Below, piece after piece: positions 24,813 to 47,797 of a stretch of DNA of 64,000 bases. Each line of letters starts with the position of its first letter. Position 1 is the first letter of the stretch. This stretch comes from Elephas maximus indicus (taxonomy: Eukaryota; Chordata; Mammalia; Proboscidea; Elephantidae): NCBI RefSeq assembly GCF_024166365.1, contig NC_064831.1, positions 25,968,768 to 26,032,767 of the forward strand. The letters are read 5' to 3'. Under the pieces are notes generated by a model that had not been told where the DNA came from, searched no databases, and saw only the letters and a list, made by a program, of their open reading frames with translations. The position numbers and the translations under genes are program-made.

Positions 24813-27800
24813 TAACCTGTGTAGGGAGTGAGGAGGTGGGAGGGACTAGGCTGGGCCCTGTGAAGGGAGTCAGGAGGTGGGAGAGACCCTGCAGAGCCCT
24901 ATACAGGGAGTGAGAGACCAGGCAGGGCCCTTTAAAGGGAGTAAGATGGTGGGACAGAACAGACAGAAACCTGCGTAGGGAGTGAAGGGGTGAGAGACCA
25001 GACATGGACCTTTGCAGGGACTGAGGAGGTGGGTGAGACCAGGCAGGGCCCTGTGTAGGGAGTGAGGAGGTGGGAGATACCAGGCAGGGCCCTGAGTATG
25101 GAGAGAGGAGATGGAAGAGACCAGGCAGGGACAGGTGTAGGAAGTGAGGAGGTGGGAGGGACCTGAAGGGCCCTGTGTAGGGAGTGAGGATGTGGAAGAG
25201 AACAGGCAGAGAACTGTGTAGGGAGTAAGGAGGTGGGAGAGACCAGGCAGAGGAGGTACGAGAGAACAGGCAGGGCCCTGATTAGGGGGTGAGGAGGTGG
25301 AATATACCAGTCAGGGCCCTGTGTAGGGAGTGAGGAGATGCGAGAGAAGAGACAGAGACATCTGTAGGGAGTAAGCAGATGGGAGACACCAGGCAGGGCC
25401 CTCTCTAGGTAGTGAGGAGGTGGCACAAACCAGGCAGGGTTCTGTGTAGGGAGTCAGGAGGTGGGAGAGACCAGGCAGGGCACTCTATAGAGAGTGAGGA
25501 TAAGGGAGAGAACAGACAGAGACCTGTGTAGGGATTGAGGAGGTGGGAGAGACCAGGCAGAGCCCTGTGCAGGGAGTGAGGACGGGGGAGAGAACAGGCA
25601 GGGCCCTGTATAAGGAGTGAGGAGGTGGCAGATGAGGCAGGGCTCTGTGTAGGCAGTGAGGAGGTGGGAGAGGAGGCAGGGCCCAGTATAGGGGTTGAGG
25701 ATATGGGAGACAAAAGTCAGAGACCTGAGTAGGGTGTAAGGAGGTGGGAGAGACCAGGCAGGGCACTCTGTAGAGAGTGAGGATAAGGGAGAGAACAGAC
25801 AGAGACCTGTGTAGGGATTGAGGAGGTGGGAGAGACCAGGCAGAGCCCTGTCTAGGGAGTGAGGAGGTGGGAGAGGACAGGCAGAGCCCTGTGTAGGGAG
25901 TGAGGATGTGGGAAGACAAGGCAGAGCCCTATGTAGGGATTGAGGATGTGGGAAGACAAGGCAGAGCCCTATGTAGGGAATGAGGAGGTGGGAGAGACAA
26001 GGCAGGGCCCTGTGTAGGAATTGAGGAGGTGGGAGAGACCAGGCAGGGCCCTGTGTAGGGAAGGAGGAGGTGGGAGAGACCAGGCAGGGCCATGTGTAAG
26101 GAGTGAGGAGCTGGGAGGGAGCAGTCAGAGACATGTGTAGGGAGTGAGGAGGAGGGCGGGAGCAGTCAGAGACTTGTGTATGGAGTAAGGAGGTGGGAGA
26201 GAATAGGCAGAAACTTGTGTAGGGAGTAAGAAGATGGGAGACAGCAGGCAGGGCCCTATGTATGGAGTGAAGAGGTGGGAGAACAATTCAGAGACCTGAA
26301 TAGGGAGTGAGGAGGTGGGAGAGACCAGGCAGGGAGCTGTGTAGGGAGTGAGGAGTCCAGAGCTCAGGCAAGTCCCTTTGTATGGAGTAAGGATGTGGGA
26401 TAGACCAGGCAGGGCCCTGTGCAGGGAATGAGGAGGGGGAGAGAACAGGCGGAGAACAGTGTAGGGAGTGAAGAGATGGGAGAGACCAGGCAAGGACCTG
26501 TGTAAGGAGTGAGGAGGCGGGAGGGAGCATTCAGAGACCTGTGTAGGGAGTGAAGAGATGGGAGAGACCAGGCAGGGCCCTGTCTAGGCAGTGAGGAGTT
26601 GGGAGAGACCAGGCAGAGACCTGTGTAGGGAGTGAGAAGATGGGAGACAGCAGGCTGGGCCCTGTGTAGGGACTGAGGATGTGGGAGAGGCAAGGCAGGG
26701 CCCTGTGTAGGGAGAGAGGATGTGGGAGAGACCAGGCAGGGCCCTGTGTAGGGAGTAAAGAGGTGGAGAGACTAGGACGTGGCTTGTTTAGGGAGTGAGC
26801 AGGTGCGAGAGACCATCGGGGCCCTGTGTAGTGAGAGAGGAGGTGGGAGAAAACAGGCTGACACCTGTGTAGGTAGTAAGGAGGTGGGAGAGACCACCCA
26901 GAGACCTGTGTAGGGATTGAGGAGGTGGAAGAGACCAGGCAGGGCCCTGTGTAGGGAGTGAGTAGGTAGGAGAGACCAGGCAGGGCTCTGTGTAAGGAGT
27001 GATGAGGTGGGAGAGACCAGGCAGGGCCCTGTGTAGGGAGTGAGGTGTTGAGAGAGACCAGGCAGGGCCCTGTGTAGGGAGTGAGGATGTGGGCCAGACC
27101 AGACAAGGCCCTGTGTAAGGAATGAGGAGGTGGGAGGGATCAGTCAGAGACCTAGGTAGGGAGTGAAGAGATAGGAGAAACTAGGCAGGGCCCAGTCTAG
27201 GGAGTAAGGAGTTGAGAGAGATCCTGCAGAGACCTGTGTAGGGAGCCAGGAGGTGGGAGAGAACAGGCAGAAACCTGTGTAGGGAGTGAGAAGATGGGAG
27301 ACAGCAGGCAGGGCCCTGTGTAGGGAGTGAAGAGGTGGAAGATCCATTTAGAGACCTGCATAGGGAGTGAGGAGGTGGGAGAGACTATGCAGGGCCCTGA
27401 GTAGGGAGTGAGGAGGTGGGAGAGAACAGGCAGAGACACATGTGGAGAATGAGGAGGTGGGAGAAACCATGCAGAGACCTGTGTAGGGATGGAGGAGGTG
27501 GGAGGGACCAGGTAGGGCCCTGTGGAGGGAGTAAGGAGGTGGAGAGTCCAGGCAGTGGCTTTTTTAGGGAGTGAGCAGGTGCAAGAGACCATCAGAGCCC
27601 TGTATAGTGAGTGAGGAGGTGGGAGAAAACAGGCTAACACCTGTGTAGGTAGTAAGGAGGTGGGAGAGACCACCCAGAGAAGTGTGTAGGGATTGAGGAA
27701 TGGGAGAGAACAGGCAGAGCCTTGTGTAGGGAGTGAGGAGTTTGGAGAGACCAGGCAGGGCCCTGTATAAGGAGTGAAGAGGTGGGAGAGACCAGCCAGA

Positions 27801-30800
27801 GACCTGAGTAGGGACTGAGGAGGTGGGAGAGAACAGGCAGAGCCTGGTGTAGGGAGTGAGGAGTTGGGAGAGACCAGGCAGGGCCCTGTGTAGGGATTGA
27901 GGAGATGGGACAGACCAGGTAGGGCCCTGTAAAGTGAGTGAGGTGGTGGGAGAGACAAGGCAGGGCCCTGTCAAGGGAGTGAGGAGGTGTGAGAGACCAG
28001 GCAGAGACCTGTGTAGGTAGTGAGGAGGTGGGAGAGACCAGGCAGGGGCCTGTGTAGGGAGTAAGGAGGTTGAAGAGACCAGGCAGGGCCCTGTGTAGGG
28101 AGTGAGGAGGCCATAGAGACCAGGCAGGGGCCTGTTTAGGGAGTGAGGATGTGGGAGAGATCACCCAGATACCTGTGTGTGGAGTGAAGAGGTGGGAGAG
28201 AACATGCAGGGCCCTCCATAGGGAGTAAGGAGGTGGGAAAGGCCAGGCAGGGCCCTGTGTAGGGAGTGAGGATGTGGGAAAAACCAGGCAGGGTCCTGTG
28301 TAAGGAGTCAGGAGGTGGGAGGGAGCAGTCAAAGACCTGTGTAGGGTTGAGGAGGTGGGAGAGATCAGGCAGGGCCCTGTCTAGGGAGTGAGGAGTTGGG
28401 AGAGACCAGGCAGAGACCTGTATAGGGAGTAAGGAGGTTAGAAATACCAGGCAGGGCCCTGAGTAGGGAGTGAGGAGTTGCGAGAGAACAGGGAGAGACC
28501 CTTGTAGGGAATGAGGAGGTGGGAGAAACCATGCAGAGACCTGTGTAGGGATGGAGGAGGTGGGAGGGACCAGTTAGGGCCCTGTGTATGTAGTCAGAAT
28601 GTGAGAGAGAGGAGGCAGGGCCCTGTGTAGACATTTAGCATGTGTGAGAGGTCAGGCAGGGCCCTGTGTAGACATTAAGCATGTGTGAGAGGTCAGGCAG
28701 GGCCCTGTGCAGGGAGTGAGGATGTGGGAGAGACCAGGCAGGGCCCTGTGTAGGGAGTGAGGAGGTGTAGAGACCAGGCAGTGCCCTGTTAAGGGATTGA
28801 GCAGGTGCAAGAGACCATAAGGGCCCTGTGTATGGAGTGAGGAGGTGGGAGAGAACAGGCAGAAACCTGTGTATGGAGTGAGAAGATGGGAGACAACAGA
28901 CAGGGCCCCGTGTAGGGAGTGAAGAGGTGGAGAACCAGGCAGGGCCCTGTCTAGGGAGGGAGGAGGTGGGAGATAACATCCAGAGAACAGTGTAGGGAGT
29001 GAGGAGGTGGGAGAAACAAGGCAGGGCTCTGTGTGGGGGGTGAGGAGATAGAAGAGACCAGGCAGGGCCCTATAATGTGAGTGAGGTGGTGGGAAAGACG
29101 AAGCAAGGCCCTGTGTAGGGAGTGAGGAGGTGGCAGAGACCAGGCTGGGCCCTGTGTAGGGAGTGTGGGGGTGGGAGAGACCAGGCTGGGCCCTGGGTAG
29201 GGAGTGAGTAGATGGGAGAGAATAGGCAGAAACCTGTGTAGGGAGTGAGAAGATGGGAGACAGCAGGCAGGGCCCTGTGTAGGGAGCGAAGAGGTGGGAG
29301 AAGCATTCAGAGACCTTCATAGGGAGTGAGGATATGGGAGAGACCAGGCAGGGCCCTGTGTAGGGAGTGAGGAGGCCAGAGATCAGGCAGGTCCCTGTGT
29401 ATGGAGTAAGGGATGTGGGAGAGACCTGACAGGGCCCTGTGCAGGGATTGAGGAGGTGGGAAAGAGGAGGCAGGGCCCTGTGTAGGGAGTGAGTAGGTGG
29501 GAGAGAGGAGGCAGGGCCTTGTGTAGGGAGTGAGGAGGTGGGAGAGACCAGGCAGGGCCCCGTGTAGGAAGTGAGGACCTGGGAGAGAACAGACAGATAC
29601 CTGTGTATGGAGTGAGAAGATGGGAGACACCAGACAGGGCCCAGTGTAGGGAATGAAAAGGTGGGAGAACCAGGCAGAGACCTTCATAGGGAGTGAGGAG
29701 GTGAGTGAGACCAGGCAGGGCTCTGTGTAGGGAGTGAGGCTGTGGGATAGACCAGGCAGGGCCCTGTGTAGGGAGTGAGGAGGTGGAGGACAGCAGGCAG
29801 GGCCCTCAGTAGGGAGCAAGGATATGGCAGCAACCAGGCAGGGCCCTGTGTAGGGAGTGAGGAGCTGGAAGAGAACAGGTGGGGCACTGTAGGAAGTGAG
29901 GACATGGGAGAGAACAGGCAGGGCCCTGTCTAGGGAGTGAGGAGGTGGAGAGACCAGGCAGAGCTCTGTGTAGGGAGTGAGGAGTGGGCTAGACCAGGCA
30001 GTGCCCTGTGTAGGGAGTGAGGAGGTGGGAGAGAACAGGCAGACACCTGTGTAGGGAGTGAGGAGGTGGGAGAGACCAGGCAGGGCCCTGTGTAGGGAGT
30101 GAGGCTGTGGGATAGACCAGGCACGGCCCTGTGTAGGGAATGAAGAGGTGGAGGAGACCAGGCAGAGCCCTCAGTAGTGAGTAAGGATATGGGAGAGACC
30201 AAGCAGGGCCCTGTGTACGGAGTGAGTAGTTGGGAGAGAACAGGCAGAGACCCTTGTAGGGAATGAGGATGTGGGAGAAACCAGGCAGAGACCTGTGTAG
30301 GGAGTGAGGAGGTGGTAGAGACCAGGCAGAGCCTTGTGTAGGGAGTCAGGATGTGGGCGAGACCAGGCAGGGCCCTGTGTAGGGAGTGAGGAGGTGGGAG
30401 AGACCAGGCAGGGCCCTGTGTATGTAGTAAGGACATGGAGAGACCAGGCAATGCCCTGTTAAAGGATTGAGCAGGTGGGAGAAACCATCAGGGCCCTGTG
30501 TAGGGAGTGAGGAGGTGGGAGAGAACAGTCAGACACATGTGTATTTAGTGAGGAGGTGTGAAAGACGACCCAGAGACCTGTGTAGGGACTGAGGAGGTGG
30601 GAGAGAACAGTCAGGGCACTGTGTACGGAGGGAGGAGGTGGGATAGACAAGGCAGGGCCCTGTCTAGGGAGTGAGGAGGTGGGAGAGACCAGGCAGGGCA
30701 CTGTGTTGGGAGTGAGGAGATGGGAGAGACCAGGCAGGGCCCTGTAAAGTGAGTGAGGTGGTGGGAGAGATCAGGCAGAGACCTGTGTAGGTAGTCAGGA

Positions 30801-31258
30801 TGTGGGAGAGACCAGTAAGGGCTCTGTGTAAGGAGTGATGAGGTGGGAGAGACCAGGCTGGGCCCTGTGTAGGGAATGAAGTGGTGGAACAGACCAGGCA
30901 AGGCCCTGTGTAGGGAGTGAGGTTGTGGGAGAAACCAGGCAGGGCTCTGTGTAAGGAGTGATGAGGTGGGAGAGACCAGCCAGGACCCTGTGTAGGGCGT
31001 GAGGAGGTGGGAGAGACCAGGCTGGGCCCTGATAGGGTCTCAGGAGGTGGGAGAGACCAGGCAGGGCCCTGTGTAGGGAGTGAGGATTTAGGAGAGACCA
31101 GGCAGGGCCCTGTGTAGGGAGTGAGGATTTAGGAGATACCAGGCAGGGCCATGTGTAGGGAGTAAGGATGTGGGAGAGATCATTCAGGACCCTGTGTAGG
31201 GAGTGAGGAGGTGGGAGAGACCAGGCAGAGACCTCTGTAGGGAGTGAGGAGGTGTGAC
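24813..31258. repeat. 41-bp GC-rich subtelomeric minisatellite, about 157 copies
   Basis: The unit reads approximately gggccctgtgtagggagtga then ggaggtgggagagaccaggc plus one a. Units vary at a few positions (gggccctg or agagacctg; agaccagg or agaacagg). Higher-order structure is visible: a variant with gaagatgggagaca recurs at about 26,229, 26,637, 27,291, 28,882, 29,250 and 29,606, mostly at near-multiples of 41 bp. On the minus strand the unit has no stop in any frame and 41 is not divisible by three, so long artefactual open frames (SLPPPHSLHRALPG-like) cycle through three frames. No start context, splice structure or codon bias supports a protein. Confidence 0.95.
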
Positions 31259-31535
31259 CGATCAGGAGAAGGCTCAGGTGTGTAGAGTTAAGGACTAAGT
31301 GGCTCTGTTGGAATAGACTTGATGGCACCTAACAACAACTGTTAAAAAACAATGAAATAAAATACAACGAGTGGTACGAGAAAGGTGAATAGAAATTTAA
31401 AAACATGAACTTATCTGTATCTCAAATGAATCTCATAATCACACTGGAGAATGACCAAACGAAAAAGAATCAGTCCATGTAAATTGAAATACAATACCTT
31501 GGTTATATATATATATATATATCAGGCCATAGATT
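31259..31535 (+). other. Array-edge sequence with a SINE 3' tail and a TA-repeat
   Basis: After the last minisatellite unit, 31,296-31,335 resembles the 3' end of an AfroSINE (ggaatagacttgatggcacc then taacaacaac). The remainder is AT-rich with (TA)n at 31,504-31,522. No gene is seen. Confidence 0.6.
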
Positions 31536-36225: not shown

Positions 36226-36917
36226 GCAACACGCACTCAGGAAAACTACCTCAGGAAAACTCCACTGAGGTAGCCCTGTTCTCGAAGAGGAACAAGTATG
36301 CAGTGTTAGTGTTAAGGGATTGTGAAAGCACATTGTTGTCCAGGGAAAACAATGCGCATGGTGAAATCCTAACAAGCCCAAGTGCCTCTCCACAGTTCAA
36401 AGTGTGTAACTACACACTCTTTTCCAAGTAGGACAGCTCAGAGGCAACATCACCCTGCATGTTTCTCAGCGAAAGGAAGAACTCCCTGACTTCATCGAGT
36501 CCTCTGACGAAAGCAGTCAGAATGAGAAAACCAGCATTTGTTTTCTCTTCCCTGCAATGAGCTCAGCAGATTTGATCCTTGCAAAAGCGAGGTTTTCCCA
36601 GGAAAACTCCATTGCGGTAGCACTGTTCTTGAATGGGAACAGGTATGTAGTGTTACCGCTAAGGGATTGTGAAAGCACGTTGTTGACCAGGAAAAACAAA
36701 GTGCATGGTGAAACCCTAACAAAGCCAATTGCCATTCCTCAGTTCAAAGTGTGTAACTACACTCTGTTCCAGGTAAGAGAGCACAGAGGCAACATCAGCC
36801 TGCATGTTTATCAGTGAAAGAAAGCACTCTCTGACTTCCTCCAATCCTCTGACGAAAGCAGTCAGAATGAGAAAACCGTCATTTGGTTTCTCTTTCCTGC
36901 AATAAGCTCGGCAAATT
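36226..36917. repeat. 345-bp satellite, left part
   Basis: Two units. Diagnostic phrases are ctcaggaaaactccattgtg-like, gattgtgaaagcacgttg (near 36,319 and 36,666), ccacagttcaaagtgtgtaa and gcaatgagctcggcaaat at the unit border (near 36,554 and 36,898). The array is cut at 36,917 by an ERV and resumes in register at 45,015. Short open frames in it are artefacts. Confidence 0.92.
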
Positions 36918-37721
36918 TGTTACCGCAGATTGTGGGTTTGAGCCACCTGCTGCAAAGCCAATACTGAGACAGGAGGAGGTAAGCAGTAAAGGCTTTATTG
37001 AATACCTGTATTCAAGGGACAGAGCGGGTTAAATTTCGCCCAAATTTTGTCTGCCCTAAAGGGTTGATGGGAGGGTTTTATACGCGAAAGATCAGGGTTA
37101 CCAAATGTTTTGAGCGTGTAGTCCACAGATGGCCTTATAGGTCACAAAACAACTATAAAAACTCTTTATTAAACTAAAGATAAACATGTCAGGCACCTTG
37201 GACTCTAATCAGCATATTTATAACAGGATGAAAAAGCTCTCATAAGCATCTCTCGGCTAGTGGGGCTGTTTTGCCAAGTCCACTGTGGCTGAGATAGGGA
37301 GCAAGAAAGAAAGCCTTCTTGTCGGTTTCCAGGCCGAAGGCCATTTCTCAAGAAAACAAACAAAGGAGAAAAGAGACCAAGGCCACAGGAGCTGAGATAG
37401 CTCTGTACCTCTTTGGAAGAGACTGGTGCACCCGGTGCAATTAAAAAAAAGTTTAGAGATTACTTACAGCATCATTATGGCGTTAGTCATGTCAAGCTCT
37501 CAATCACCTGTTTCGAATAGGGGAAAATATGTTGTAAGATATTAGGGTGTTTATTATGTTTAAGAGCGGAACAGGCTGCTCAGCTATATTTTGAACAGAG
37601 CCTGCACCATTTTCCAAGGACTAGAGATTAATCACAGCTTATACAGTTATATTAAAACAAATGAGAAAACATATTCTCCCTAATATTAAAACACTAAAGA
37701 AAATGCATTTTCACTACTTCA
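36918..37721 (-). repeat. 3' LTR of the class I ERV
   Basis: This is 804 bp with TG...CA ends read on the minus strand (tgaagtagtgaaaatgcatt at the start, ggtaaca at the end). The sequence gctttattgaatac on the plus strand is the complement of an AATAAA polyadenylation signal. It pairs with 44,222-45,014. Confidence 0.92.
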
Positions 37722-37736
37722 ATCCCCCCTTTTTCT
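37722..37736 (-). other. Polypurine tract
   Basis: Minus strand agaaaaaggggggat directly abuts the 3' LTR. This is the plus-strand primer for retroviral DNA synthesis and fixes the provirus orientation. Confidence 0.88.
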
Positions 37737-37759
37737 GAAAGTTTCACGATCTTGGGAAA

Positions 37760-38425
37760 CAGGGCAGCACTCAATCTGGCTACTTCCTGCTGAAGAGGGG
37801 CATGAAGTCGGGGAATATTTATTTAGGGTGGGGGTTAGAAGTAGAGTTAGCATGAGAGGCAATAGCATCTAAGTGAACCAAATGGTGAGCATCTCCTTGG
37901 TTGACTGGAGAATTCTCTCAGCCAACTAGGGTAAAAATATTCCCTGCCTTTAAGGCAGTCCTAGTTCCTTTGAGAAAGATTTTTAGAAAACATGGAACAC
38001 AAATACACACTATTAAAATTATAATTCCCAAGGTGACGAGAGGGACCAACCAAGATCTTATGGATGGGAACAGATTCAAAATCCCATCCCATGGTCCACC
38101 TGGCCGTGCTAGGGGATCTGTCCACTCAGTAATTTTATGGATCGCTTTTAATTCAACGTCCACTTCCCCTGAAGTGTTAATCCAGGTACAACGAGCCTTA
38201 TTAATTATGGCACAAACACCCCCTGATTTTGCCAACAAGAAGTCCAATGCAATCCTGTTGTCTAAGACCACACCAACCAGGGAATTTAAGGAGGCTTGTT
38301 GGGCCTTTTTTTTTTTTTTTGTTGGGCCTTTAGGGCTCTGTCAGTACCCAGGGCTAATAAATGGATTGTATCTGAAAGGTTTTTAATAGACATTTCCATA
38401 TGATATATTCCTAGTCCGGGAATTA
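37760..38425 (-). pseudogene. ERV env, transmembrane subunit (broken)
   Basis: One open frame (37,918-38,271) carries the hallmark core VLDNRIALDFLLAKSGG followed by a cysteine pair spaced by seven residues (GVCAIINKARC), an N-x-S site, a basic/aromatic pre-membrane segment and a hydrophobic span with GIIILIVCICVPCFL. This matches the immunosuppressive-like and membrane-anchor region of gamma-type envelopes. The N-terminal heptad region is recognisable further upstream but in another frame. A 15-T run flanked by gttgggcc repeats (38,301-38,330) breaks the reading frame. The usual second cysteine of the CX6CC motif is not seen (R-C-T), which may be decay. Confidence 0.82.
38301..38330 (-). mobile_element. 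Poly(A)-only insertion with short direct repeats in env
   Basis: On the plus strand gttgggcc, a run of 15 T, then gttgggcc again. A bare A-tail flanked by a duplication of 8-10 bp on the minus strand looks like an extremely truncated LINE-machinery insertion; simple slippage would not duplicate the flank. Confidence 0.5.
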
Positions 38426-38439
38426 TGGTCCTCAGAAAC

Positions 38440-39100
38440 CACTAACACTGGGTTATATCCATCATCCTGGGTTTTTAATGTAACATGATTTACAGAAAAA
38501 ACATCTTGCTTTTTCCTTGATGGATGTGGAATGCTGGTGGTGGAATGGACTTGGGTGGGAAAGACTAGGAACCCTAAGATGCACTGGCCAATGAAGTGGA
38601 TCCCATTTAAGCACTGGATGGCCCAAGTCCAGGGCGAGTTGAATGAGTTGGGTGACTAGCTATTGGGGTATGGCTTGCCCCCACACAGGAAAGTATAACC
38701 TAGTGGGGCACAAAAAGACAAACATTCATTCGGGACATTTGGGATGCTTGAATTAAAATGTAACAAAGAGGGGTTGACAAGAGAGCCATTGCATGAAGAG
38801 AGAAGTTGAAAATTTCTGAAAATTTGTTGATCTATTCGTACTAGGGGTACTTGGAACTTTAATCCCCAATTTCCTTTTTCACTATGGTTATACAGATTAG
38901 AGAGGAAGAAGCAAGGGACAGAAGAAGGATATTGCACAGAGCACGGTGCATTAACACACCCTCAGACATAATTTTATCGTAGTTGAAAACTGGAGCAGTC
39001 ACAAGACTTAGGGGGGCACTAGATCCTGGCAAATGGTGGCACACCCAGCAACTGCTGAGATTCCCTCCCTTAGCCACAGCTTGGTGGACCTGGTAACTAG
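38440..39100 (-). pseudogene. ERV env, surface subunit (broken)
   Basis: Two overlapping frames (38,859-39,077 and 38,656-38,937) share one gene with a frameshift between them. The first contains NLSSCWVCHHLP; the CWVC motif at 39,039-39,050 is the disulfide-exchange motif of gamma-type surface subunits. The second continues with several N-x-S/T sites and cysteines (NECLSFCAPLGY, FLCGG). The cleavage site and fusion peptide are not clearly readable. A further frame change separates this part from the Ig-like domain upstream, so several indels have accumulated. Confidence 0.75.
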
Positions 39101-39149
39101 ACCATTAGATGACCAGTCCCAGCCATCTGGGAGGTGAGATGGTTCTTTT

Positions 39150-39581
39150 TTCCCAATAATAATCACATAAGTCCCCTGCCCCCGGCTGATTTCAATATCC
39201 ATGGGGGATCCTTTCTTATATTTTACACAGAAATATGTCCCTGCATTAGACAGAGTAACATTCTGAATAATAATAGAAAAATCACGATTTTTAAACTGAG
39301 TAGCGTCAGCCATAAGGGAAACTTGAGGAAAATCTCCAGTCGATTTCCAAACTACAGAGTGCTCTTCCCCTGGAGATTCTCGAATCCTCTTAATAGAACC
39401 TACAGGGGTTAAAGAAAAGCTAATACAAGGGAGAGTCAGGGAGTGTCCCACTTGTAAAGTCAAGGTGCCTCTCGACTGGAGAATAGTAGGAGCCTGGCTT
39501 GACTCTTTCTTGGCTGAGGCAGGCCCGACCTGGAATAGAAAAACAATAAGGATTAGGAAAAAAAAAAAGGATTAGAGTCAT
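39150..39581 (-). pseudogene. ERV env N-terminus: signal-like segment plus SIRP-like Ig V domain
   Basis: An ATG lies at 39,581, two bases after the pol stop. A hydrophobic stretch follows, then an immunoglobulin V-type domain. Visible marks: B-strand cysteine in SLTLPC (codon near 39,425), D/E-strand FSIIIQNVTL, F-strand AGTYFCVKYKKGSP (cysteine codon near 39,227) and G-strand RGQGTY. The two cysteines are 66 residues apart, normal for an Ig V fold. The phrases VKYKKGSP, SLTPVGSI and FKNRDFSI are those of the N-terminal domain of the SIRP family, host receptors that bind CD47. The usual C-strand tryptophan is not at its expected place. An 11-T run puts the ATG out of frame, and another frame change separates the domain from the surface subunit. 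Capture of a host SIRP exon by the virus is inferred. Confidence 0.75.
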
Positions 39582-39583
39582 GT

Positions 39584-40600
39584 TTAAATCTTTGAGAATC
39601 TGTACTTTAGGTCTTGAACTGGGGTGCAGGTATATGAGGATTCTTCAGTCTTCTTGCTAGGTTCTTCTCGAGGCGGTGGGGCCGGTTTTACTCTAGTATG
39701 ATGCACCCGTGCAGTTACTCCGGCCAGTTTCAGAGAGGGATGAGTAGTTAGAAGGACTTCATATGATCCCAGCCAGATGGGGGCCAGGTGATCTTCTGGA
39801 TGTTGATCCTTCCAAGCTTTTAACAAGACCCGATCTCCTGGCTTGAACCTATGAAGAGGCACATCGGAGGGGAAGGGCAAACGAGAAGAAGCATATTTGT
39901 TAATAGTACTTATAACTACTCCTAAGGACCGGACCCAATTTCTCTTTTCAACTTCCGTCATGACGGAGGTGGGGAAAGTTGACTGTTTCAGGAATGGCCT
40001 CCCATGTGTAAGTTCATAAGGACTTAAGCCCACTTCGAGGGGCCCCCCGAATCCTAGGCAGGGCAATTGGTAATACCTGTAACCAAGTGAAGTGGGTTTT
40101 TTGGCAAAGGTTAGCAACAGCCCCTTTTAAAGTATGGTTCATCTTTTCAGTCTTTCCAGTAGGTTGTGGCCTCCACGACGAGTGCAGCTTCCAGCTGATG
40201 TCCAAGGCCTTGTTAAGCTTGTTGATTTACCTGGGCCACAAAAGCTCCCCAATTATCACTCTAAATTGAGAGTGGCAAACCAAATAGGGGAATAACCTCT
40301 TCAAGTAATGCCTTAGTCACTCCTCGAGCATGTTCAGTCTGGCAAGGAAAATTCTCTACCCACCCAGAGTACGTGTCTACAAACACTAGTATATACCTGA
40401 AGTTTCCAGGTGCTCGAAGCATCACCGTAAAATCCACTTGCCAATCTTCTCCCATGTTTGTTCCTCCGTGTTGTATCCTTTGCTCCGCTGGGTGTGGCAC
40501 TGTCTTTGGGTTGTTTTTAACACACAACGGGCATCTTTTAGTGACCTCACGTACTGTCTTGAGGATCTTTGGTCCTGTGGCTGTTTGCTGAATTCATTCC
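39584..40600 (-). pseudogene. ERV pol, integrase (broken)
   Basis: Three frames cover it. 40,261-40,527 contains RCPLCVKNNPKTVPHP-like zinc-finger end sequence (in part from upstream), then GEDWQVDFTV with the first catalytic aspartate and FVDTYSGWVENFPC. 40,014-40,205 has TGKTEKMN, the glutamate of the DDE triad. 39,584-40,117 is 177 residues of integrase C-terminus with FKPGDRVLLKAW, the beta-barrel DNA-binding domain, and ends at a stop just before env. Frameshifts separate the parts and the segment around the second aspartate (DNWGAF, near 40,250) is followed by a stop. Class I (gamma-type) by these motifs. Confidence 0.85.
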
Positions 40601-40711
40601 AGAATTCGCGTCCCTCCCATAATGCGTGCTTTCATGCAGAGCTGATACTGTGTTATAAACTAAAAGTTTTTAATAGATGGCAATGAACACTAGGAAGACT
40701 CATCAGGCCTC

Positions 40712-41455
40712 TTTTTTTTTTTTTTTTAGGGGATAATAAATCACATAAAATCCTTTTTAATCTTAGTTTTACAGCTGTAAAATCTTTATTAAGAGCGAGG
40801 CACTGGAGAAATACTTGGTGGTCAGGCCCTTTCAGTAGAGCCCCTGTTGTAGTAGCTCTTTAAACCGGCCGGCCGCCCAGGCCATCTCTCTCAGGCTCGG
40901 AAACTACTTTTCTGTTAGGTGGTTGAGGAGGACGCTGGTCTTGCGACAGCGGCCAGCAGGCGGGCCCAGCAGAGGCGGCAGTAGCTGTGGCCACAGGGCA
41001 TGGTCACCAGTTCACTCAGGAAGCCGGGCAGCCCAGGCAGTTCAGGAGCTCGGCGGCACCAGTGTGGGCGCCCAGCCGGGTCGCGCTCCAACTAGTCAGT
41101 CTATCAAGGTGCGGAGGTGCTCGGGCTGTCAGAGGGGCCACAGCACAGTGCCGCTGTGTCTCTAGCGCTTTCTTTAGGTGGCCACGCAGCACCAGCAGCT
41201 CACCATGGCGCAGCTGCAGCTCTAGGCGCTCTAGCCAGTCGCCGCTGTCGCAGTCCACTGTCCACCTCCGGGGGGCCATTTCTCGGCTCCCTCCCAGGGC
41301 GCTTCTCGCCACCGCGGGAGAAGCAGACAAAGCCCGCGGAGGACTGCTGCTCTGTCGCCCCCGCCCCGCTCTCGGAGCCTCCGGGGCGCGCCGCTCTGCA
41401 CGCGGCCCGCCTTAAGCCAGAACCCCCCCAACCCCTTTTGTTTTAAGAGAGGAAG
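40712..41455 (-). pseudogene. LONRF1: LONRF1-like processed retrocopy inside ERV pol
   Basis: A CpG-rich segment unlike its surroundings reads on the minus strand as a gene 5' end. The frame 41,016-41,330 has PAVARSALGGSREMAP, then LRHGELLVLRGHLKKALE; just downstream, in shifted frame, comes VTMPCGHSYCRLC, a RING-finger core. Further on are VLNHL and KELLQQG, and near the end QCLALNKDFTA and RILCDLLSP, which resemble TPR parts of the LON-domain RING protein LONRF1. It ends in a run of 16 A (plus-strand T-run 40,712-40,727). Distant exons are joined, so it derives from spliced mRNA, with internal deletions and frameshifts. The flanking pol is missing the end of RNase H and the start of integrase. 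No clear target-site duplication was found. Gene identity rests on remembered family motifs. Confidence 0.6.
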
Positions 41456-41490
41456 AGCTGTGTTGGGGTGTTGGGATATTCACAGTCATT

Positions 41491-41508
41491 TTTTTTTTTT
41501 TTTTTGGC
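41491..41508 (-). repeat. Second A-run (plus-strand T-run) upstream of the retrocopy
   Basis: About 17 T on the plus strand between cagtca and ggccgagtgtg. Pol homology stops just to its right. It may mark a separate retro-insertion or a boundary of the LONRF1-like segment. Confidence 0.6.
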
Positions 41509-41519
41509 CGAGTGTGAAT

Positions 41520-42449
41520 TTTTCGGCTTCTTGGGGTAAGTCTCAGGTTGCAGCCACTGCCCACAAACGCGGTCGCCATCTCCTAGTCACGGTGTCTAAT
41601 TGCTTTGAGAAGTATGTCACGGGACGCCTGGCGGAGCCCAAAGTCTGTGTCAGAACTCTCATAGCGATATCTTTCTCCTGTGCAAACAGTTCAAAAGACT
41701 TTTGTAAATCAAGCAGTCCCAAAGCTGGGGCCGTCATCAACGTACGTTTAATATTTTAAAAGCTTGTTAACATTCTCTTTCTTCCCCCTTTCAGGGCTTC
41801 ATAAAAGTGTTTTGCCAAGACTCTAAACCTGAGGATTCCGATTTGACAAAACCCAGCCATCCTTAGGAATCCTCTTAGCTGTGGCTTTTGGGCTGTCACC
41901 ATCATGATTGCTTCCCTTCAATCTGGGAGAAGGTCTCACTGTCTGAGAAATCTGGAGTCTCAAATATTTAACTTGTGGGAGAGAAATTTGTGTCTTTTTC
42001 TCAGATACCCGGTACTCGCACTCTGCCAAGTGCTTTGAAACTAATACAGTATTTTGGTTACAGTCTTTAGTTTTACTACTAGCCACCAAAATTTCATCAA
42101 CATATTATAAAATCAGACCTCGATTCAGCTTTTATAACCTGAAATCCCTTGTCAAATTTTTCTAAAAATGGAGAATTTTTAAATGCCTGGATGAGGACTT
42201 GTCATGTAAGATGTTGTTTCACCCCAGTAGCTGTTATCATTCAAAAGCAAATAGTTGTTGAGACTCAGGATGTAAGAGGATGTGAAACAATGCATCTTTC
42301 AGACCTAGCACTGAAAACCATTTATATTGGCTGGGTATGGTGGCAAGGAGGTTGTAGGGATCTGGAACTACTGGATGTACATTTTCTACTATTTGGTTAA
42401 TTTTCCTCAGATCTTGTACAAAACAGTATTCTTTTGTTCTTGGTTTCAC
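41520..42449 (-). pseudogene. ERV pol, reverse transcriptase and start of RNase H (broken)
   Basis: 42,237-42,449 contains FVQDLRKINQIVENVHP and SVLGLKDALFHILLHP, the finger and palm motifs of gamma-type RT. 41,823-42,089 has KHLAECEYRVSEKKTQISL and QVKYL, the thumb. 41,543-41,740 has [17 protein letters not shown] and [12 protein letters not shown], the connection and RNase H start. The catalytic motif at 42,093-42,104 reads YVDE instead of YxDD and is preceded by a stop codon, so the enzyme is dead. The N-terminal part of RT and all of protease are missing by deletion. Confidence 0.88.
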
Positions 42450-43200
42450 ACTGTTCTTTTCTTCACATTCTCTGTCTCTCTTCTCACACCCTTACTTTTT
42501 AGAATTCTCTCCAGTTTTACATGTCTCTCTCTCTCACTCATTCTCTTCTCCTCTAGCCCCCCGTATCACTTTCTCATCAATCTTTTTATTTTTGTTGGTT
42601 GGTCTTCATTATTGAAGACCTTAAAGGCAACTAGCATCTGTCTTTGTGGTCGCCCCTTAGTGTTTACTCTGGCTGGAACTTTTCTCAAGGGATATTGCCC
42701 TGCCTGGTTTTTGGGGGCTCCCTCACCAAAAACTGTACCCTGTCGGGTACGAGAAGGGAAAACCATACCTGAAGCTGCGTCTCCACTGTCCGTCTCTTCC
42801 GTGTCTCTCCCTTTTGTTCTGCACGATGGACCCATACTAGAGTCCAGTCCCAACTCTGGTGGGAAGTGTGTATTCTCATCCTCTGCCCTGTCCTCTCCCA
42901 GCAGTGGCACCACCGCCACAATAAGGAGGAGGAGGAGCCATAGCTGAAACCAGAGTCCATCCCTCCAGCAAGGGGTCCTTTCTGGAAGAATCGGGAAGCA
43001 CTTTTGGCTCCTCTTCACCTTGAAAACGAACTTGGTTAGAGGGGTTTATATTGATATGGTGATATAAATGCTTGAACATAGGGGACTTCAGCTCATTTTT
43101 TTGTCTTTTACAAAACAAATTAAGCTGAAAGACCATACCAAAAATCAAGGAACCATACTGTGGCCAATGTCCCTGATTTTTTAGCTTGTATTTATGTCAA
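42450..43200 (-). pseudogene. ERV gag remnant (matrix end, PPPY region, capsid end)
   Basis: Minus-strand frames near 43,060-43,200 have GHWPQYGS and FGMVFQLNLF, matrix-like. Near 42,921-42,935 comes PPPPY in MAPPPPYCGGG, a late-domain motif that recruits host NEDD4-type ligases for budding. Around 42,470-42,660 a charged EKRMSERERD-type stretch resembles the end of capsid. Most of capsid and all of nucleocapsid are deleted, and RT follows immediately. Several stops and frame changes occur, and no frame exceeds 150 residues. Confidence 0.65.
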
Positions 43201-44198
43201 ACATTATTGTATAAAAACTTATTATTATTATTATTAATCATGAGTTCATAGTTCTACCTTTTCTAGTTTGTTAGGATGCACCTCAGGAGGGATTTAGCAG
43301 GGATTTATGAGTCCTCCCCCCCCGCCCGATCTCTTTTCAAATGTTTAGTAGTTATTGATGGGCCGATTCTTCTCTTTTGAACCTGATCATGGTGAATTGC
43401 ATGGTCTACCTGGAAGTCCACTTTTTTCTAATTAAGCTTAATTCAGCCTTATCTCTTAGACGCTGGTCTAAGGCACCTTGGGCATAGTAGACTTCCGATA
43501 ACCTATGTGACCAATTGTCACAATTAAAGAACTGGGACTAAAAATATTTATGAATTTGACAACAGGTTTTGTATAAATAGGGGTTAGCATAATGACAAAG
43601 AAGACACGAGATCTCTTCAGTTTCACATGGACAATTCTACTGGTAGGCACACAGATCACACATATACACACTCAGCTACTTGGCCAGACTCACGCTCACC
43701 CTTGGCAGCCTCAACCTCTCAGACAATCCCTAGGATGACAGAGGTAATCCTGACAGCCTCAGCAGCCTCAACCTCTCAGGCAATCCCTAGGATGACAGAG
43801 GCAATCTTGACTGCCTCATTCACACACCAAAAACCAAAACCAAGACTCTAGAACCACCAGGAGTCCTTTATGCGAGCCTACTCAGAGGGTAAGTCATCTG
43901 AAGCAACACTGGCTTCAGAAACCAAGAGTCTAAGCCTCCGTTGGGGTTGCTCTATCTGCCCTGGCCCTGAGTGCAACAGGGACAGGAATGGTGGACTCAC
44001 CCCGGGGTTTTTCTCTTAGCCTGTCTTGTTCTCTGCTTAACTGATTTCTCTGCGGTTAGGGACCAGCGGTGCCGTGGCAAGAATAGGGATCAGGCAATGT
44101 TTCCCTTTGGAGGAAAAAAAACCTCCAGCGGCCACTTAAGGGTTAATTTGCCAGTCCGAGCCCCATCTGGGGCAGCCACATCTCAAGCAGCAAAAACA
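43201..44198 (-). other. ERV leader region, with a 57-bp direct duplication
   Basis: Untranslated leader between the primer site and gag, about 1 kb. Two copies of a 57-bp block with gcctcaacctctcagacaat and atccctaggatgacagagg stand at 43,705-43,761 and 43,762-43,818. The 5' portion of gag may lie in its left end, but frames are too short to assign. Confidence 0.55.
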
Positions 44199-44216
44199 GC
44201 CCCACGTTGGGCACCA
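44199..44216 (-). other. Primer binding site, lysine tRNA type
   Basis: Minus strand tggtgcccaacgtggggc, five bases after the end of the 5' LTR, is one base from the complement of the tRNA-Lys(1,2) 3' end. This primer is typical of betaretrovirus-like elements, while pol and env here are gamma-like. Confidence 0.85.
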
Positions 44217-44221
44217 GAATT

Positions 44222-45014
44222 TGTTATTGCAAATTGCGGGTTCAAGCCACCTGCCGCAAAGCCAATACTGAGGCAGGAAAAGGTAAACAGTAAGAAGGCT
44301 TTATTGAATACTGGTATTCAAGAGACAGAGGGGGTTAAATTTCTCCCAAATTCTGTCTGTCCTAAAGGGTTTATGGGAGGTTATAATACAGGCTTACCTA
44401 ATGTTTTGAGCACATAGTCCACAGATGGTCTTATACATCACAAAAGAATTATACAAAATCTTTATTAAACTAAGATAAACATGTCAGGCACCTTGGACTC
44501 TAATCAGTATATTTGTAACAGGCTGAAAAAGCTCTCATAAGCATCTCTCGGCTAGTGAGGCTGTTTTGCCAAGTCCACCGTGGCTGAGATAGGGAGCAAG
44601 AACGAAAGCCTTCTTGTCGGTTTCCAGGCCGAAGGCCATTTCTAAAGAGAACAAACAAAGGGGAAGAGAGATCAAGGCCACAGGAGCTGAGATAGCTCCA
44701 CACCCTTTTGGAGGAAACCAGTGCAGCTGGTGCAATTAAAAAAATGTTTAGAAATTACTTAGAGCATCATAAAGGCGTTAGCCATGTCAAGCTCTCAATC
44801 ACCTATTTCAAATAAGGGAAAATATGTTGTAAGGTATTAGAGTGTTTATGTTTAAGAGCAGAACAGACTGCTCAGTTATATTTTGAACAGAGCCTGCACC
44901 ATTTTCCAAGGACTAGAGATTAATTACAGCTTATACAGCTATATTAAAACAAATGAGAAAATATATTCTCCCTAAATATTAAAACACTAAAGAGAATGCA
45001 TTTTCACTACTTCA
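44222..45014 (-). repeat. 5' LTR of the class I ERV
   Basis: 793 bp, TG...CA ended on the minus strand, colinear with the LTR at 36,918-37,721 with scattered substitutions and small indels. It is adjacent to the primer site on its inner side and to the satellite on its outer side. Confidence 0.92.
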
Positions 45015-47797
45015 AATCTGGCCCTTGCAAACACAAGGTTTCCTCAAGGAAACTACACTGTGGTAGCCCTGTTCTTGAAGAGGAACAAGTATGTAGTGTT
45101 ATGGTTAAGAGATTGTGAAAGCAGGTTGATGCCCAGGAAAAACTATGTGCATGGTGAAATCCTAACAAACCCAAGTGCCTTTCCACAGTTTAAAGCGTGT
45201 AACTCCAAACTGTTCCAAATAAGAGGCAACAGCAGCCTGCATGTTTCTCAGTGAAAGGAAGAACTCCCTGACTTCATCCAGTCCTCTGAGCAAAGCAGGC
45301 ATAATGACAGAAACTGTCTTTTCTTTACTCTTTCCTGCAACAACGCAGTAATTGGCTCTTGCGAATACGCATACAAAGGAGTAACTTCATAGTGTTAGCG
45401 TTAAGAGATTGTGAAAGCACCCTGATGCCCAGAGAGACAAAGGCTTTTTGTATTCTCTTTCCTGCCTGAACTTCATATACTTTCACTTGTAAAAGCAAGG
45501 TTTCCCAGCACAAACTGCAAACCAGTAACCTCTCTCCTTGCAGAGAAACTAATAGGTAGTATTGCGGTGAAGACATAATGAGAGCACACTGAGGCCCAGG
45601 GAAAATCCGAGCAACGCCCTGTCTTTCCCCACTTGAATGCATGTCAATTTAGATTATTTGCAAAGAACATAGCTAAGAGGCAACATCAGCTTTTGTGTTT
45701 CTCAGTGAAACGAACAATTTTCTGACTTCAACCAGACCTCTGACGAAAGCAGTCAGAAGGAGAAAATCATCATTTGATTTCTCTTTCCTGCAATGAGCTT
45801 GGCAAATCTGGCCCTAGCAAACGCAAGGTTTCCTCAGGAAAACTACATTGTGGTACCCTGTTCTGTAAGTGGAACAAGAACGTAGAGTTAGCTTTAAGAG
45901 ATTGTGAAAGCACGTTGCTGCCCAGGAAAAACAAACTGCATGGTGAAATCCTAACAAACCCAAGTGTCTTTCCACAGTTCAAAGTATATAACTATACGCT
46001 CTTTTCCAAATAAGAGAGCGCACAGGCAACATCAGTCTACATATTTCTCAGTGAAAGAAAGAATTCCATGATGTCATCCACTCCTCTGAGAAAAGCAGGT
46101 ATTGTGAGAGACTGTCTATTCTTTTCTCTTTCCTGCAATGAGCTCAGAAAATCTGGCCCTTGCAAACGCAAACTTTCCTCAGGAAAACTCCATTGTGGTA
46201 TCTCTGTAGCTGAAGTGAAAAAAGTATTTAGTGTTAGCGTTCAGAGATTGTGAAAACACGTTGTTGCCCAGGGAAAAAAAGTGTATGGTGAAATCCTAAC
46301 GAACCCAAGAGCCTTTCCACAGTTCAAAGTGTGTAACTACACACTCTTTTCAAAGTAAGAGAGCGCAGAGGCGACATCACCTTGCATATTTCTCAGTGAA
46401 ACAAAGAACTCTCTAACTTCATCTAGTTCTCTCACCAAAGCAGTCAGAATGAGAAAAACGCCATTTGGTTTCTGTTTCTTGCAAATGAGCTGGCAAATCT
46501 GGCCCTGGCAAACGCAAGGTTTCCTCAGAAAAACTCCATTGTGTAGCCCTTTTCTTGAAGTGGAACAAGTATACTGCATTAGCCTTTAGATATTGTAAAG
46601 GCACGTTTTTGCCAAGGGAAAACAAATTGCCTGGTGAAATCCTAACAAACCCCGGTGCCTTTCCACATTGCAAAGTGTGTAACTACACATCCTTTTCCAA
46701 ATAAGAGAGCAGAGGCAACATCAGCCTGCATGTTTCTCAGTGAAAGGGAGAACTCCCTGACTTCATCCAGTCCTCTGAGCAAAGCAGGCATAATGAGAGA
46801 AACTTTTTTTTCCTTCCTCTTTCCTGCAAAGAATTCCTCCTTTGCTCTTGCAAACACAAGGCTTCTTCTGAAAAACTACATTGCTGTGGATTTATTTTTC
46901 CAGACGAGCAACTAAAAAGTCTTAGCTTTGAGAGATCGTGAAAGCACCCTGACCCAGGGAGAAAAAGGCCTTTTGTATTCTCTTTCCTGCCTGAACTGGG
47001 TCAATTTGCACTTGCGAAGGCAAGGTTTCCTAGCACAAACTGCAAAGCAGTAACCTCTCTCCTGGCAGAGTAAATCCTATGTAGTGTTGCCCTGAAGAGA
47101 TACTGTGAGCACAGTGAGGCCCAGAGAAAACAGAGTGCATAGTGAAATCCTAGCAAAGCCATGTCTTTCCCCACTTGAATGCATGTCATTTTCAGTTCTT
47201 TGCCAAGAACAGAGCTCAAAGGCAACATCAGATTTTGTGTATCTCAGTGAAAGAAAGAACACTCTGACTTCATCCATTCCTCTGACGAAAGCAGTTAGGA
47301 TGAGAAAACTGTCATTTGGTTTCAATTTCCTGCAATGAGCTCGGCAAATCTGCCCTTCCGGGAGGGAAGGTTTCCTCCGGAGAACTCCCTTGCGGTAGCT
47401 GTGTTCTGGAAGTGGAACTAGTATGCAGTGTTAGTGTTAAGCTATTGTGAAGGCTCGTTTTTGCCCAGGGAAAACAAAGCGCCTGGTGAACTCCTAACAA
47501 ACCCTGGTGCCTTTCCACAGTTCAAAGTGTGTAACTACAGGCTCTTTTCCGAATAAGACAGTGCAGAGGCAATAGCAGTCTGCAATTTTCTCAGTGAGAG
47601 GGAGACCTCCCTAACTTCATCCAGTCCTCTGAGCAAAGCGGGCATAATGAGAGATACTTTTCTTTCCTGCAATGAATTCCTCATTTGCTCTGGCAAACGC
47701 AAGGTTTCTTCTGAAAAACTACATCGCAGTGGATTTATCCTTCCAGAGGAGCAACTACATAGTCTTAGCTTTAAAAGATTGTGAAAGCACATAACCC
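45015..47797. repeat. 345-bp satellite, right part, with longer composite units
   Basis: Unit borders (gcaatgagctcgg-like) lie near 45,341, 45,790, 46,135, 46,479, 46,825, 47,331 and 47,670. Spacings of 345, 344, 346 and 339 bp are regular. Two longer spacings (449 and 506 bp) contain an extra shortened unit joined to a diverged one through ttttgtattctctttcctgc. The array ends mid-unit at 47,797, directly against telomere-like repeat. Frames of 60-100 codons in it shift from unit to unit and are not genes. Confidence 0.92.

What the first reader, a model, noticed from the sequence alone, without database searches (positions are those of the whole stretch)
39150..39581. SIRP-like immunoglobulin domain built into a retroviral envelope gene
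Between the pol stop and the CWVC-bearing surface subunit, where an env signal peptide and N-terminus belong, the sequence encodes an Ig V domain with cysteines 66 residues apart, AGTYFCVKYKKGSP and a GxGT strand. These phrases are those of host SIRP proteins, the CD47 receptors. The order is signal-like stretch, Ig domain, surface subunit, transmembrane subunit on one strand, with no sign of introns. The inference is that an exon or mRNA of a SIRP gene was captured by an exogenous ancestor, perhaps to use CD47 as receptor or to blunt phagocytosis. I do not know of a described retroviral envelope of this kind. This copy is broken by an 11-T run, frameshifts and stops.
Basis: partly seen in the sequence, partly recalled or inferred. 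Interest (0 to 1): 0.92.

Follow-up and report, generated by a model that had tools for sequence, protein, structure and literature searches.

The report
Retroviral envelope carrying host SIRP domain
An old family of retroviruses, preserved as fossils in this mammal's genome, carried a piece of a host immune-cell surface protein (a SIRP) at the tip of its own envelope protein, which may have given it a new way to attach to cells or to disturb immune recognition.

Summary
Confirmed, and larger than first seen. On the minus strand an old provirus (36918-45014; LTR K2P 0.101) has, between the pol end and the CWVC-bearing surface subunit, an Ig V domain whose 19 best solved relatives are all SIRPs (E 2e-22 to 2e-18; next Ig 3e-6). 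It is not private: outside a SIRP gene cluster the window's genome gave 107 merged loci with the domain; in 50 of 50 examined it follows integrase on the same strand, in 49 with the transmembrane subunit after it. Pairwise dN/dS of the domain falls from 0.98 between near copies to about 0.18 between lineages (near saturation), like integrase, SU and TM, so it was a working envelope part. Viral V domains form one side of a tree against SIRPs (100/99). Distant relatives lack it (transmembrane identity under 45%: 0 of 38); one has the CXXC position at residue 41, an uninterrupted Ig-bearing env at residue 171. So one SIRP V domain was inserted between signal peptide and SU. CD47 use is plausible, not shown: FG-loop lysines kept, Arg69 and most C'D contacts lost. 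Ten searches of an open-access library found no such envelope.

The parts
45015..45018 (-). target-site duplication, 5' side (GATT on the minus strand)
   Evidence: both flanks align to three units of the ~345-bp host array in one register with a 4-base overlap; the other side reads AATT (one mismatch)
44222..45014 (-). 5' LTR (TG...CA)
   Evidence: direct repeat with 36918-37721, 90.6% identical over 790 aligned bases, K2P 0.101
44199..44216 (-). primer binding site, looks one base from a lysine-1,2 type (type recalled)
   Evidence: sequence read; tRNA assignment from memory
42237..42491 (-). reverse transcriptase remnant
   Evidence: RVT_1 E 0.0015, below the curated cut-off
41543..41755 (-). 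RNase H remnant
   Evidence: RT_RNaseH_2 E 7e-6, below the curated cut-off
40261..40593 (-). integrase core
   Evidence: rve E 2.3e-8
39584..40126 (-). integrase C-terminal domain, end of pol
   Evidence: MLVIN_C E 6.4e-11
39491..39581 (-). env start codon (39581-39579) and hydrophobic leader; frame change at an 11-T run (39558-39568)
   Evidence: a similar leader precedes the domain in relatives
39152..39490 (-). SIRP-like Ig V domain
38383..39104 (-). surface-subunit pieces in shifted frames; CWVC at 39050-39039
37918..38340 (-). transmembrane subunit
   Evidence: TLV_coat E 5.4e-11; Syncytin-2 E 6e-12, Syncytin-1 E 3.7e-9
37722..37735 (-). polypurine tract next to the 3' LTR
   Evidence: read directly
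36918..37721 (-). 3' LTR
36914..36917 (-). target-site duplication, 3' side (AATT on the minus strand)

Best explanation
A class I (gamma-type) retrovirus with a short envelope whose CXXC lies near the SU N-terminus acquired, apparently once, the V domain of a host SIRP and placed it between its signal peptide and the mature surface subunit. The virus kept replicating and diversified with this chimeric envelope and left about a hundred loci in this genome; the window copy is one old, broken member. Shown here: homology to SIRP, position, presence across the family, one viral clade, purifying selection, insertion site relative to an Ig-less relative. Inferred: the V domain sat outermost on the envelope and bound a cell-surface protein; the likeliest single ligand is CD47, used as attachment factor or receptor while SU and TM kept the disulphide-switched fusion machinery (CD47 step about 0.4).
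For: SIRP homology. Position in 50 of 50 examined loci, all of them chosen by their Ig match. From the TM side, without that choice: TM identity 50% or more, 81 of 94 merged loci have an Ig match upstream; 45-49%, 3 of 16; below 45%, 0 of 38. One side of the V-domain tree, 100/99, 49 viral rows against 12 SIRP rows. In an integrase tree the distant Ig-less L072, L073, L076 are parted by 98/97 from 44 Ig-bearing rows and three deletion copies; in a TM tree all five distant Ig-less rows are parted from the rest, weakly (73/89). Median pairwise dN/dS of the domain 0.98 at pS below 0.12 (110 pairs), 0.18 at pS 0.55-0.75 (603 pairs; uncorrected pN/pS 0.40); integrase 0.69 to 0.17, SU2 0.86 to 0.17, SU3 0.59 to 0.18, TM 0.87 to 0.13. 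Insertion site: in L074 the signal peptide is followed directly by the SU segment, CXXC position at residue 41; L012 has CWVC at residue 171; host SIRP V exons are 372 nt in five genes and 351 nt in L039. CD47: over 41 dereplicated viral domains L30 41/41, G34 36/40, D65 37/39, T67 35/39, D73 37/41, K93 38/39, K96 39/41, G97 32/41 are as in human SIRPA 4cmm (contact list from PMC9457805).
Against: Y50, Q52, E54, H56, S64, L66, R69 and N70 match human SIRPA in none of the viral domains, D100 in 1 of 41. Contact sites are not more conserved within the viral family than other sites (0.72 against 0.74; 63% of random site sets reach it). The reference 4cmm differs from the paper's construct at contact sites 65, 66 and 70. 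The window copy has lost the strand-C Trp (R), as have others: 28 of 50 copies have W, 10 R, 7 a stop. Synonymous sites are near saturation in the deep pairs, pairs are not independent, and one mid-range SU2 bin is off the trend (0.48, 26 pairs). Everything is from one genome.
Confidence: 0.9

Rival explanations
1. The domain is an immune modulator rather than a receptor-binding part: on particles or infected cells it engages CD47 in place of host SIRP and alters phagocytosis or T-cell adhesion, while SU itself binds a different entry receptor.
For: SU remains downstream of the insertion, and TM is closest to syncytin-2, whose receptor-binding region lies after its N-terminal CXXC (PMC9967133, passages), so the Ig could be an add-on. 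FG-loop contacts are kept.
Against: No test here separates the two. Blocking CD47 would be expected to increase, not reduce, uptake of infected cells (inference).
Confidence: 0.3
2. The domain came from SIRP but in the virus binds another ligand than CD47.
For: C'D-loop contacts other than K53 (15/39) and Arg69 are lost throughout; S98 is kept in 22 of 41; D100 in 1 of 41.
Against: BC- and FG-loop contacts are kept in nearly all copies. The host's own SIRP V exons also differ from human SIRPA at Q52, E54, H56, S64, L66 (0 of 10 each) and D100 (1 of 9), so part of the difference may follow the host's CD47.
Confidence: 0.35
3. A SIRP fragment inserted into this single provirus after integration.
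For: None found.
Against: 50 of 50 examined loci on many contigs carry it in the same place; 107 merged loci.
Confidence: 0.01
4. A chance or non-SIRP Ig-like stretch.
For: Ig V domains share a fold, and non-SIRP Ig chains match from 2.8e-6 on.
Against: Twelve to sixteen orders of magnitude lie between the 19 SIRP chains and the next Ig family.
Confidence: 0.01
5. A passenger: the captured domain hitch-hiked without function.
For: Near copies show dN/dS near 1, but SU2 (0.86) and TM (0.87) are similar there, which fits decay after integration.
Against: dN/dS 0.18 between deep lineages, as in SU2 and integrase (0.17 each); C25 in 36 of 41 and the FG-loop lysines in 38/39 and 39/41.
Confidence: 0.05

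Closest known systems
Crocodilian CrocERV31 with captured nectin3 (PMC4299795, passages read)
   Same: An endogenous retrovirus lineage that captured a host immunoglobulin-superfamily surface protein at the env position, with purifying selection reported
   Different: There a whole three-Ig-domain mRNA replaces env; here one V domain is joined in frame to an env that keeps SU and TM
CrocERV29 with captured KIT ligand (same paper, passages)
   Same: Host gene gained without loss of a viral domain, downstream of pol
   Different: An additional reading frame, not a chimeric envelope
Syncytin-2 / HERV-FRD, gamma-type Env (PMC9967133 passages)
   Same: TM is the best solved relative; CXXC near the SU N-terminus (positions 43-46 in syncytin-2; residue 41 in the Ig-less relative L074)
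   Different: L074 has no Ig domain before CXXC, and syncytin-2's CXXC position leaves no room for one
Host SIRP alpha/beta/gamma
   Same: V domain 45 of 109 identical to human SIRPA (4cmm) and 42 of 110 to SIRPB1; FG phrase VKxxKGSP
   Different: No C1 domains and no SIRP membrane part follow; fused to viral SU and TM

Membership tests
Gamma-type (class I) retroviral envelope | TM subunit homologous to TLV_coat / syncytin TM | tested here: met
Gamma-type (class I) retroviral envelope | CXXC motif in SU | tested here: met
   CWVC in the window and in L012
Gamma-type (class I) retroviral envelope | CX6CC in TM | tested here: met
   read in L012 and L074; in the window copy one Cys is replaced
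Gamma-type (class I) retroviral envelope | furin-type site between SU and TM | tested here: inconclusive
   L074 reads RNKR; what I take for the equivalent place in the window and L012 reads SRKK; other copies not checked
SIRP family | V domain closest to SIRP rather than other Ig families | tested here: met
   (PDB sequences only)
SIRP family | C1 domains and a membrane part of its own after the V domain | tested here: not met
   the V domain is followed by viral SU and TM
SIRP family | CD47 contact residues | tested here: inconclusive
   BC, FG and part of DE kept; most of C'D and Arg69 lost
SIRP family | binding to CD47 | not testable with these tools
   needs an experiment
Retroviral host-gene capture | host-derived segment shared by several proviruses of one family | tested here: met
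Retroviral host-gene capture | segment under purifying selection during viral replication | tested here: met
   (pairwise; deep pairs near saturation)
Retroviral host-gene capture | source was spliced mRNA | tested here: inconclusive
   similarity ends about the V-exon boundary Gly; the next residues resemble the following host exon only weakly

The most novel reading that the evidence does not exclude
A retroviral lineage changed its cell attachment by taking the CD47-binding V domain of a host phagocyte receptor as the outermost domain of its envelope, and spread with it in what looks like an afrotherian lineage: a natural change of viral receptor use by capture of a host recognition domain.
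Probability: 0.4. Interest if true: 0.95.

Novelty: new variant of a known kind. Interest (0 to 1): 0.88.

Why it matters
Retroviruses are known to take up whole host genes, usually at the cost of env and of autonomy (PMC4299795, passages). Here a single host recognition domain was built into a functional envelope and kept under selection across a diversified family. It shows that envelope N-termini can gain host receptor domains in nature, offers a datable fossil series for asking how such a chimera evolved and whether host SIRP and CD47 answered it, and bears on how retroviruses change receptors.

Tried and rejected
No help: protein library search with the domain (17 candidates, none E<=0.001); viral-contig scans with the V domain, TM and integrase end (no relative); NCBIfam; Rfam and tRNA scans; PDB search with two SU pieces (nothing meaningful); single-sequence AlphaFold model of the V domain (mean pLDDT 35.4), so I made no fold search. 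I did not hand in an alignment of the relatives for folding, because loci from the genome search are not in the list that the tool says it accepts.

The position-wise table showed the matches running on out of frame, at chance identity, beyond a point. L057 (short) was left out of the second tree: 49 of 50 rows.

Tested without a clear result: whether the uninterrupted L012 frame is host-maintained. Private changes: 7 synonymous, 15 nonsynonymous, 0 stops; neutral site ratio N/S 3.29; four siblings 8.8/31.2, 8.2/25.8, 11/30 and 6/47. Lower N/S than the siblings, but too few changes to claim constraint. Also the CD47 contact-site test, and the source as exon or mRNA.

I added trees of single best integrase and TM pieces, which put L072-L076 apart and L066-L071 among the Ig-bearing copies.

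Full report
1. What is there. The region is the env of an old provirus on the minus strand. Two LTRs (44222-45014 and 36918-37721) are 90.6% identical over 790 aligned bases, K2P 0.101. They begin TG and end CA; a primer binding site follows the 5' LTR and a polypurine tract precedes the 3' LTR. The provirus sits inside a host tandem array of about 345-bp units; both flanks align to three array units in one register with a 4-base overlap, GATT against AATT, so the empty site is visible and the insertion is an ordinary retroviral integration. Pol remnants are RT and RNase H (both below Pfam's cut-offs), integrase core and the MLV-type integrase C-terminal domain. The pol frame ends at 39584 and an ATG lies at 39581.

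2. The Ig domain. The minus-strand frame 39571-39008 encodes a hydrophobic leader and a V-set domain. The 19 best PDB matches are SIRP chains, E 2.2e-22 to 2.1e-18, and the first non-SIRP Ig chain is at 2.8e-6. Identity is 45 of 109 with human SIRPA (4cmm) and 42 of 110 with SIRPB1. Downstream come CWVC (39050-39039) and SU pieces in shifted frames (no Pfam match), then a TM whose best solved relative is syncytin-2 (6e-12), then syncytin-1. The copy is broken: a frame change at an 11-T run before the V domain, further frame changes between V domain and CWVC and within SU, and one TM cysteine of the CX6CC replaced.

3. It is a family trait. The window's own genome (3.40 Gb, 64 contigs) gave 150 scored matches of 195 candidates. 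Twelve lie in one gene cluster on C34 whose V exons read as SIRP and group with human SIRPs; the other 138 merge to 107 loci, 84 of them with a listed TM match within 4 kb. A few of the 107 may be double counts or not viral: 57 were not examined. I examined 50: the 30 best matches and 20 that I chose, mainly for long Ig matches. In 50 of 50 the order integrase end, V domain, then the SU/TM pieces present holds on one strand; SU is missing in L017 and nearly so in L027, TM in L027. From the other side, a TM search scored 150 of 1703 candidates, so distant relatives are under-counted. Grouped by TM identity to the window copy, 81 of 94 merged loci at 50% or more have an Ig match upstream, 3 of 16 at 45-49%, and 0 of 38 below 45%.

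4. The exceptions. Of the 13 loci at 50% or more without a listed Ig match, seven were read. L068-L070 have the integrase end joined to the end of SU, a deletion; L066, L067 and L071 lack both the integrase end and the first part of SU in the 2.7 kb read. In trees of single best pieces these six lie among Ig-bearing copies (TM; L068-L070 also by integrase), so they look like later losses. L072 (TM 50%, integrase 39%) falls outside with the distant Ig-less relatives L073-L076: by integrase L072, L073 and L076 are parted from all Ig-bearing rows at 98/97; by TM L072-L076 are parted, only weakly (73/89). None of L066-L076 has an Ig match at E<=0.05. The other six exceptions were not read.

5. Where it was inserted. 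The Ig-less L074 (TM 42%) has an open env frame in which a signal peptide is followed directly by W-K-D-N...Q-A-V-A...G-N-L-K-D-x-W-I-C, the CXXC position being residue 41 (its first Cys is replaced in this copy). L012, an uninterrupted 586-codon Ig-bearing env, has a signal peptide, the V domain, then W-D-W-S-S-N...Q-A-V-A...G-N-L-S-D-C-W-V-C, with CWVC at residue 171. The 130 extra residues are about one SIRP V exon: 372 nt in five host genes (L031, L032, L034, L035, L036) and 351 nt in L039, with G split at both ends (the automatic boundary failed for L033, is doubtful for L040, and was not tried on L037, L038, L041, L042). The insertion point is thus between signal peptide and mature SU. 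Only this one Ig-less N-terminus was aligned. Whether an exon or an mRNA was the source is not settled: similarity ends about the exon-boundary Gly, and the next residues resemble the following host exon only weakly.

6. One capture, then selection. In a protein tree of 49 viral V domains, ten host SIRP V exons and two human SIRPs, the viral rows are one side of one branch, 100/99 (unrooted, few columns, long branches, bootstrap not settled). This fits one capture; it does not tell which SIRP was the source. Mean identity of the viral domains is 38.7% to the nearest host gene (L031) and 37.8% to human SIRPA (first pass). Median pairwise dN/dS of the V domain is 0.98 for pS below 0.12 and 0.18 for pS 0.55-0.75, beside integrase (0.69, 0.17), SU2 (0.86, 0.17), SU3 (0.59, 0.18) and TM (0.87, 0.13) (pairs with under 45 shared codons or pS of 0.75 or more left out). 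Uncorrected pN/pS in the deep bin is 0.40 for the V domain, 0.31 integrase, 0.37 SU2, 0.31 TM. The first values are decay after integration; the second say that the domain was held by selection while the virus replicated, a little less tightly than TM and integrase (median pN 0.278, 0.222, 0.194). SU2 has one bin off the trend (0.48, 26 pairs).

7. How it may work. The likeliest reading is that the V domain, at the free end of SU, binds a cell-surface partner. CD47 is the first candidate. Contact residues come from the tables of PMC9457805 (passages read); the reference 4cmm differs from that construct at 65, 66 and 70. Over 41 viral domains dereplicated at 90%, L30 41/41, G34 36/40, D65 37/39, T67 35/39, D73 37/41, K93 38/39, K96 39/41 and G97 32/41 agree with 4cmm; S98 22/41, K53 15/39; Y50, Q52, E54, H56, S64, L66, R69 and N70 in none; D100 in 1 of 41. 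Contact sites agree with human SIRPA in 333 of 747 cells against 1284 of 3613 elsewhere, while in the host's own SIRPs it is 102 of 189 against 565 of 909. Rows are related, so this is suggestive only, and within-family conservation of contact sites is not raised. In the window copy itself contacts are kept at 9 of 19 sites against 36 of 90 elsewhere. I put CD47 use at 0.4.

8. L012. Its LTRs are 94.1% identical over 564 bases (K2P 0.062) with CAAC on both flanks. A full open env at that age is notable, but its private changes (7 synonymous, 15 nonsynonymous) do not show constraint. It is described, not proposed for use.

9. Host and age. With a recalled mammalian rate of about 2.2e-9 per site and year the window copy would be about 23 and L012 about 14 million years old; slower rates make them older.

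10. Literature. Ten searches of the open PMC library, nine of them aimed at retroviral envelopes with Ig or SIRP parts or at captured host genes (sought the CD47 interface), listed no paper that I could recognise from title and abstract start as describing a retroviral envelope with a SIRP or other captured Ig domain. Passages read: PMC4299795 (nectin3 and KIT ligand capture), PMC13297096 (no SIRP, no immunoglobulin), PMC9967133, PMC9457805, PMC10536682 (no SIRP, no immunoglobulin), PMC11287128, PMC10072453, PMC10152393. Subscription papers and preprints are not covered.

Noticed in passing
L012 (G000:C3:147247782-147248198 and flanks): A natural, uninterrupted 586-codon env frame with the Ig domain, in a provirus with 94.1% identical LTRs and a perfect 4-bp duplication; selection test inconclusive.
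   Followed up: partly
window 40700-41490: GC-rich insert in pol between two A-runs that reads like a processed pseudogene with a RING-type phrase (MPCGHSYC), perhaps LONRF-like (recalled).
   Followed up: no
window 113-24817: About 24.7 kb of degenerate CCCTAA-like repeats with GC skew near -0.8, followed by a minisatellite at 24815-31266; looks telomere-like, yet the window lies about 26 Mb inside contig C17.
   Followed up: no
window 36249-36919 and 45013-47790: Host tandem array with about 345-bp units into which the provirus integrated.
   Followed up: partly
G000:C2:177985245-178015894: Five Ig-bearing ERV matches at an even spacing of about 7.3 kb, a tandem amplification.
   Followed up: no
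G000:C29:59486722-60182601: A further cluster of Ig-bearing copies whose V-domain matches split at about the same place, apparently segmental duplicates; only L058 was examined.
   Followed up: partly
L031-L038 (G000:C34, 39.6-40.3 Mb): The host SIRP cluster is expanded, and its V exons L031-L038 carry about six extra residues (such as LDRVRL) in the C'D region, next to the CD47 contact loop; L039 and the window's viral domain lack them.
   Followed up: no
window 38383-38655, L012, L074: At what I take for the SU-TM junction the window and L012 read SRKK where the Ig-less L074 reads RNKR, so cleavage may differ.
   Followed up: no
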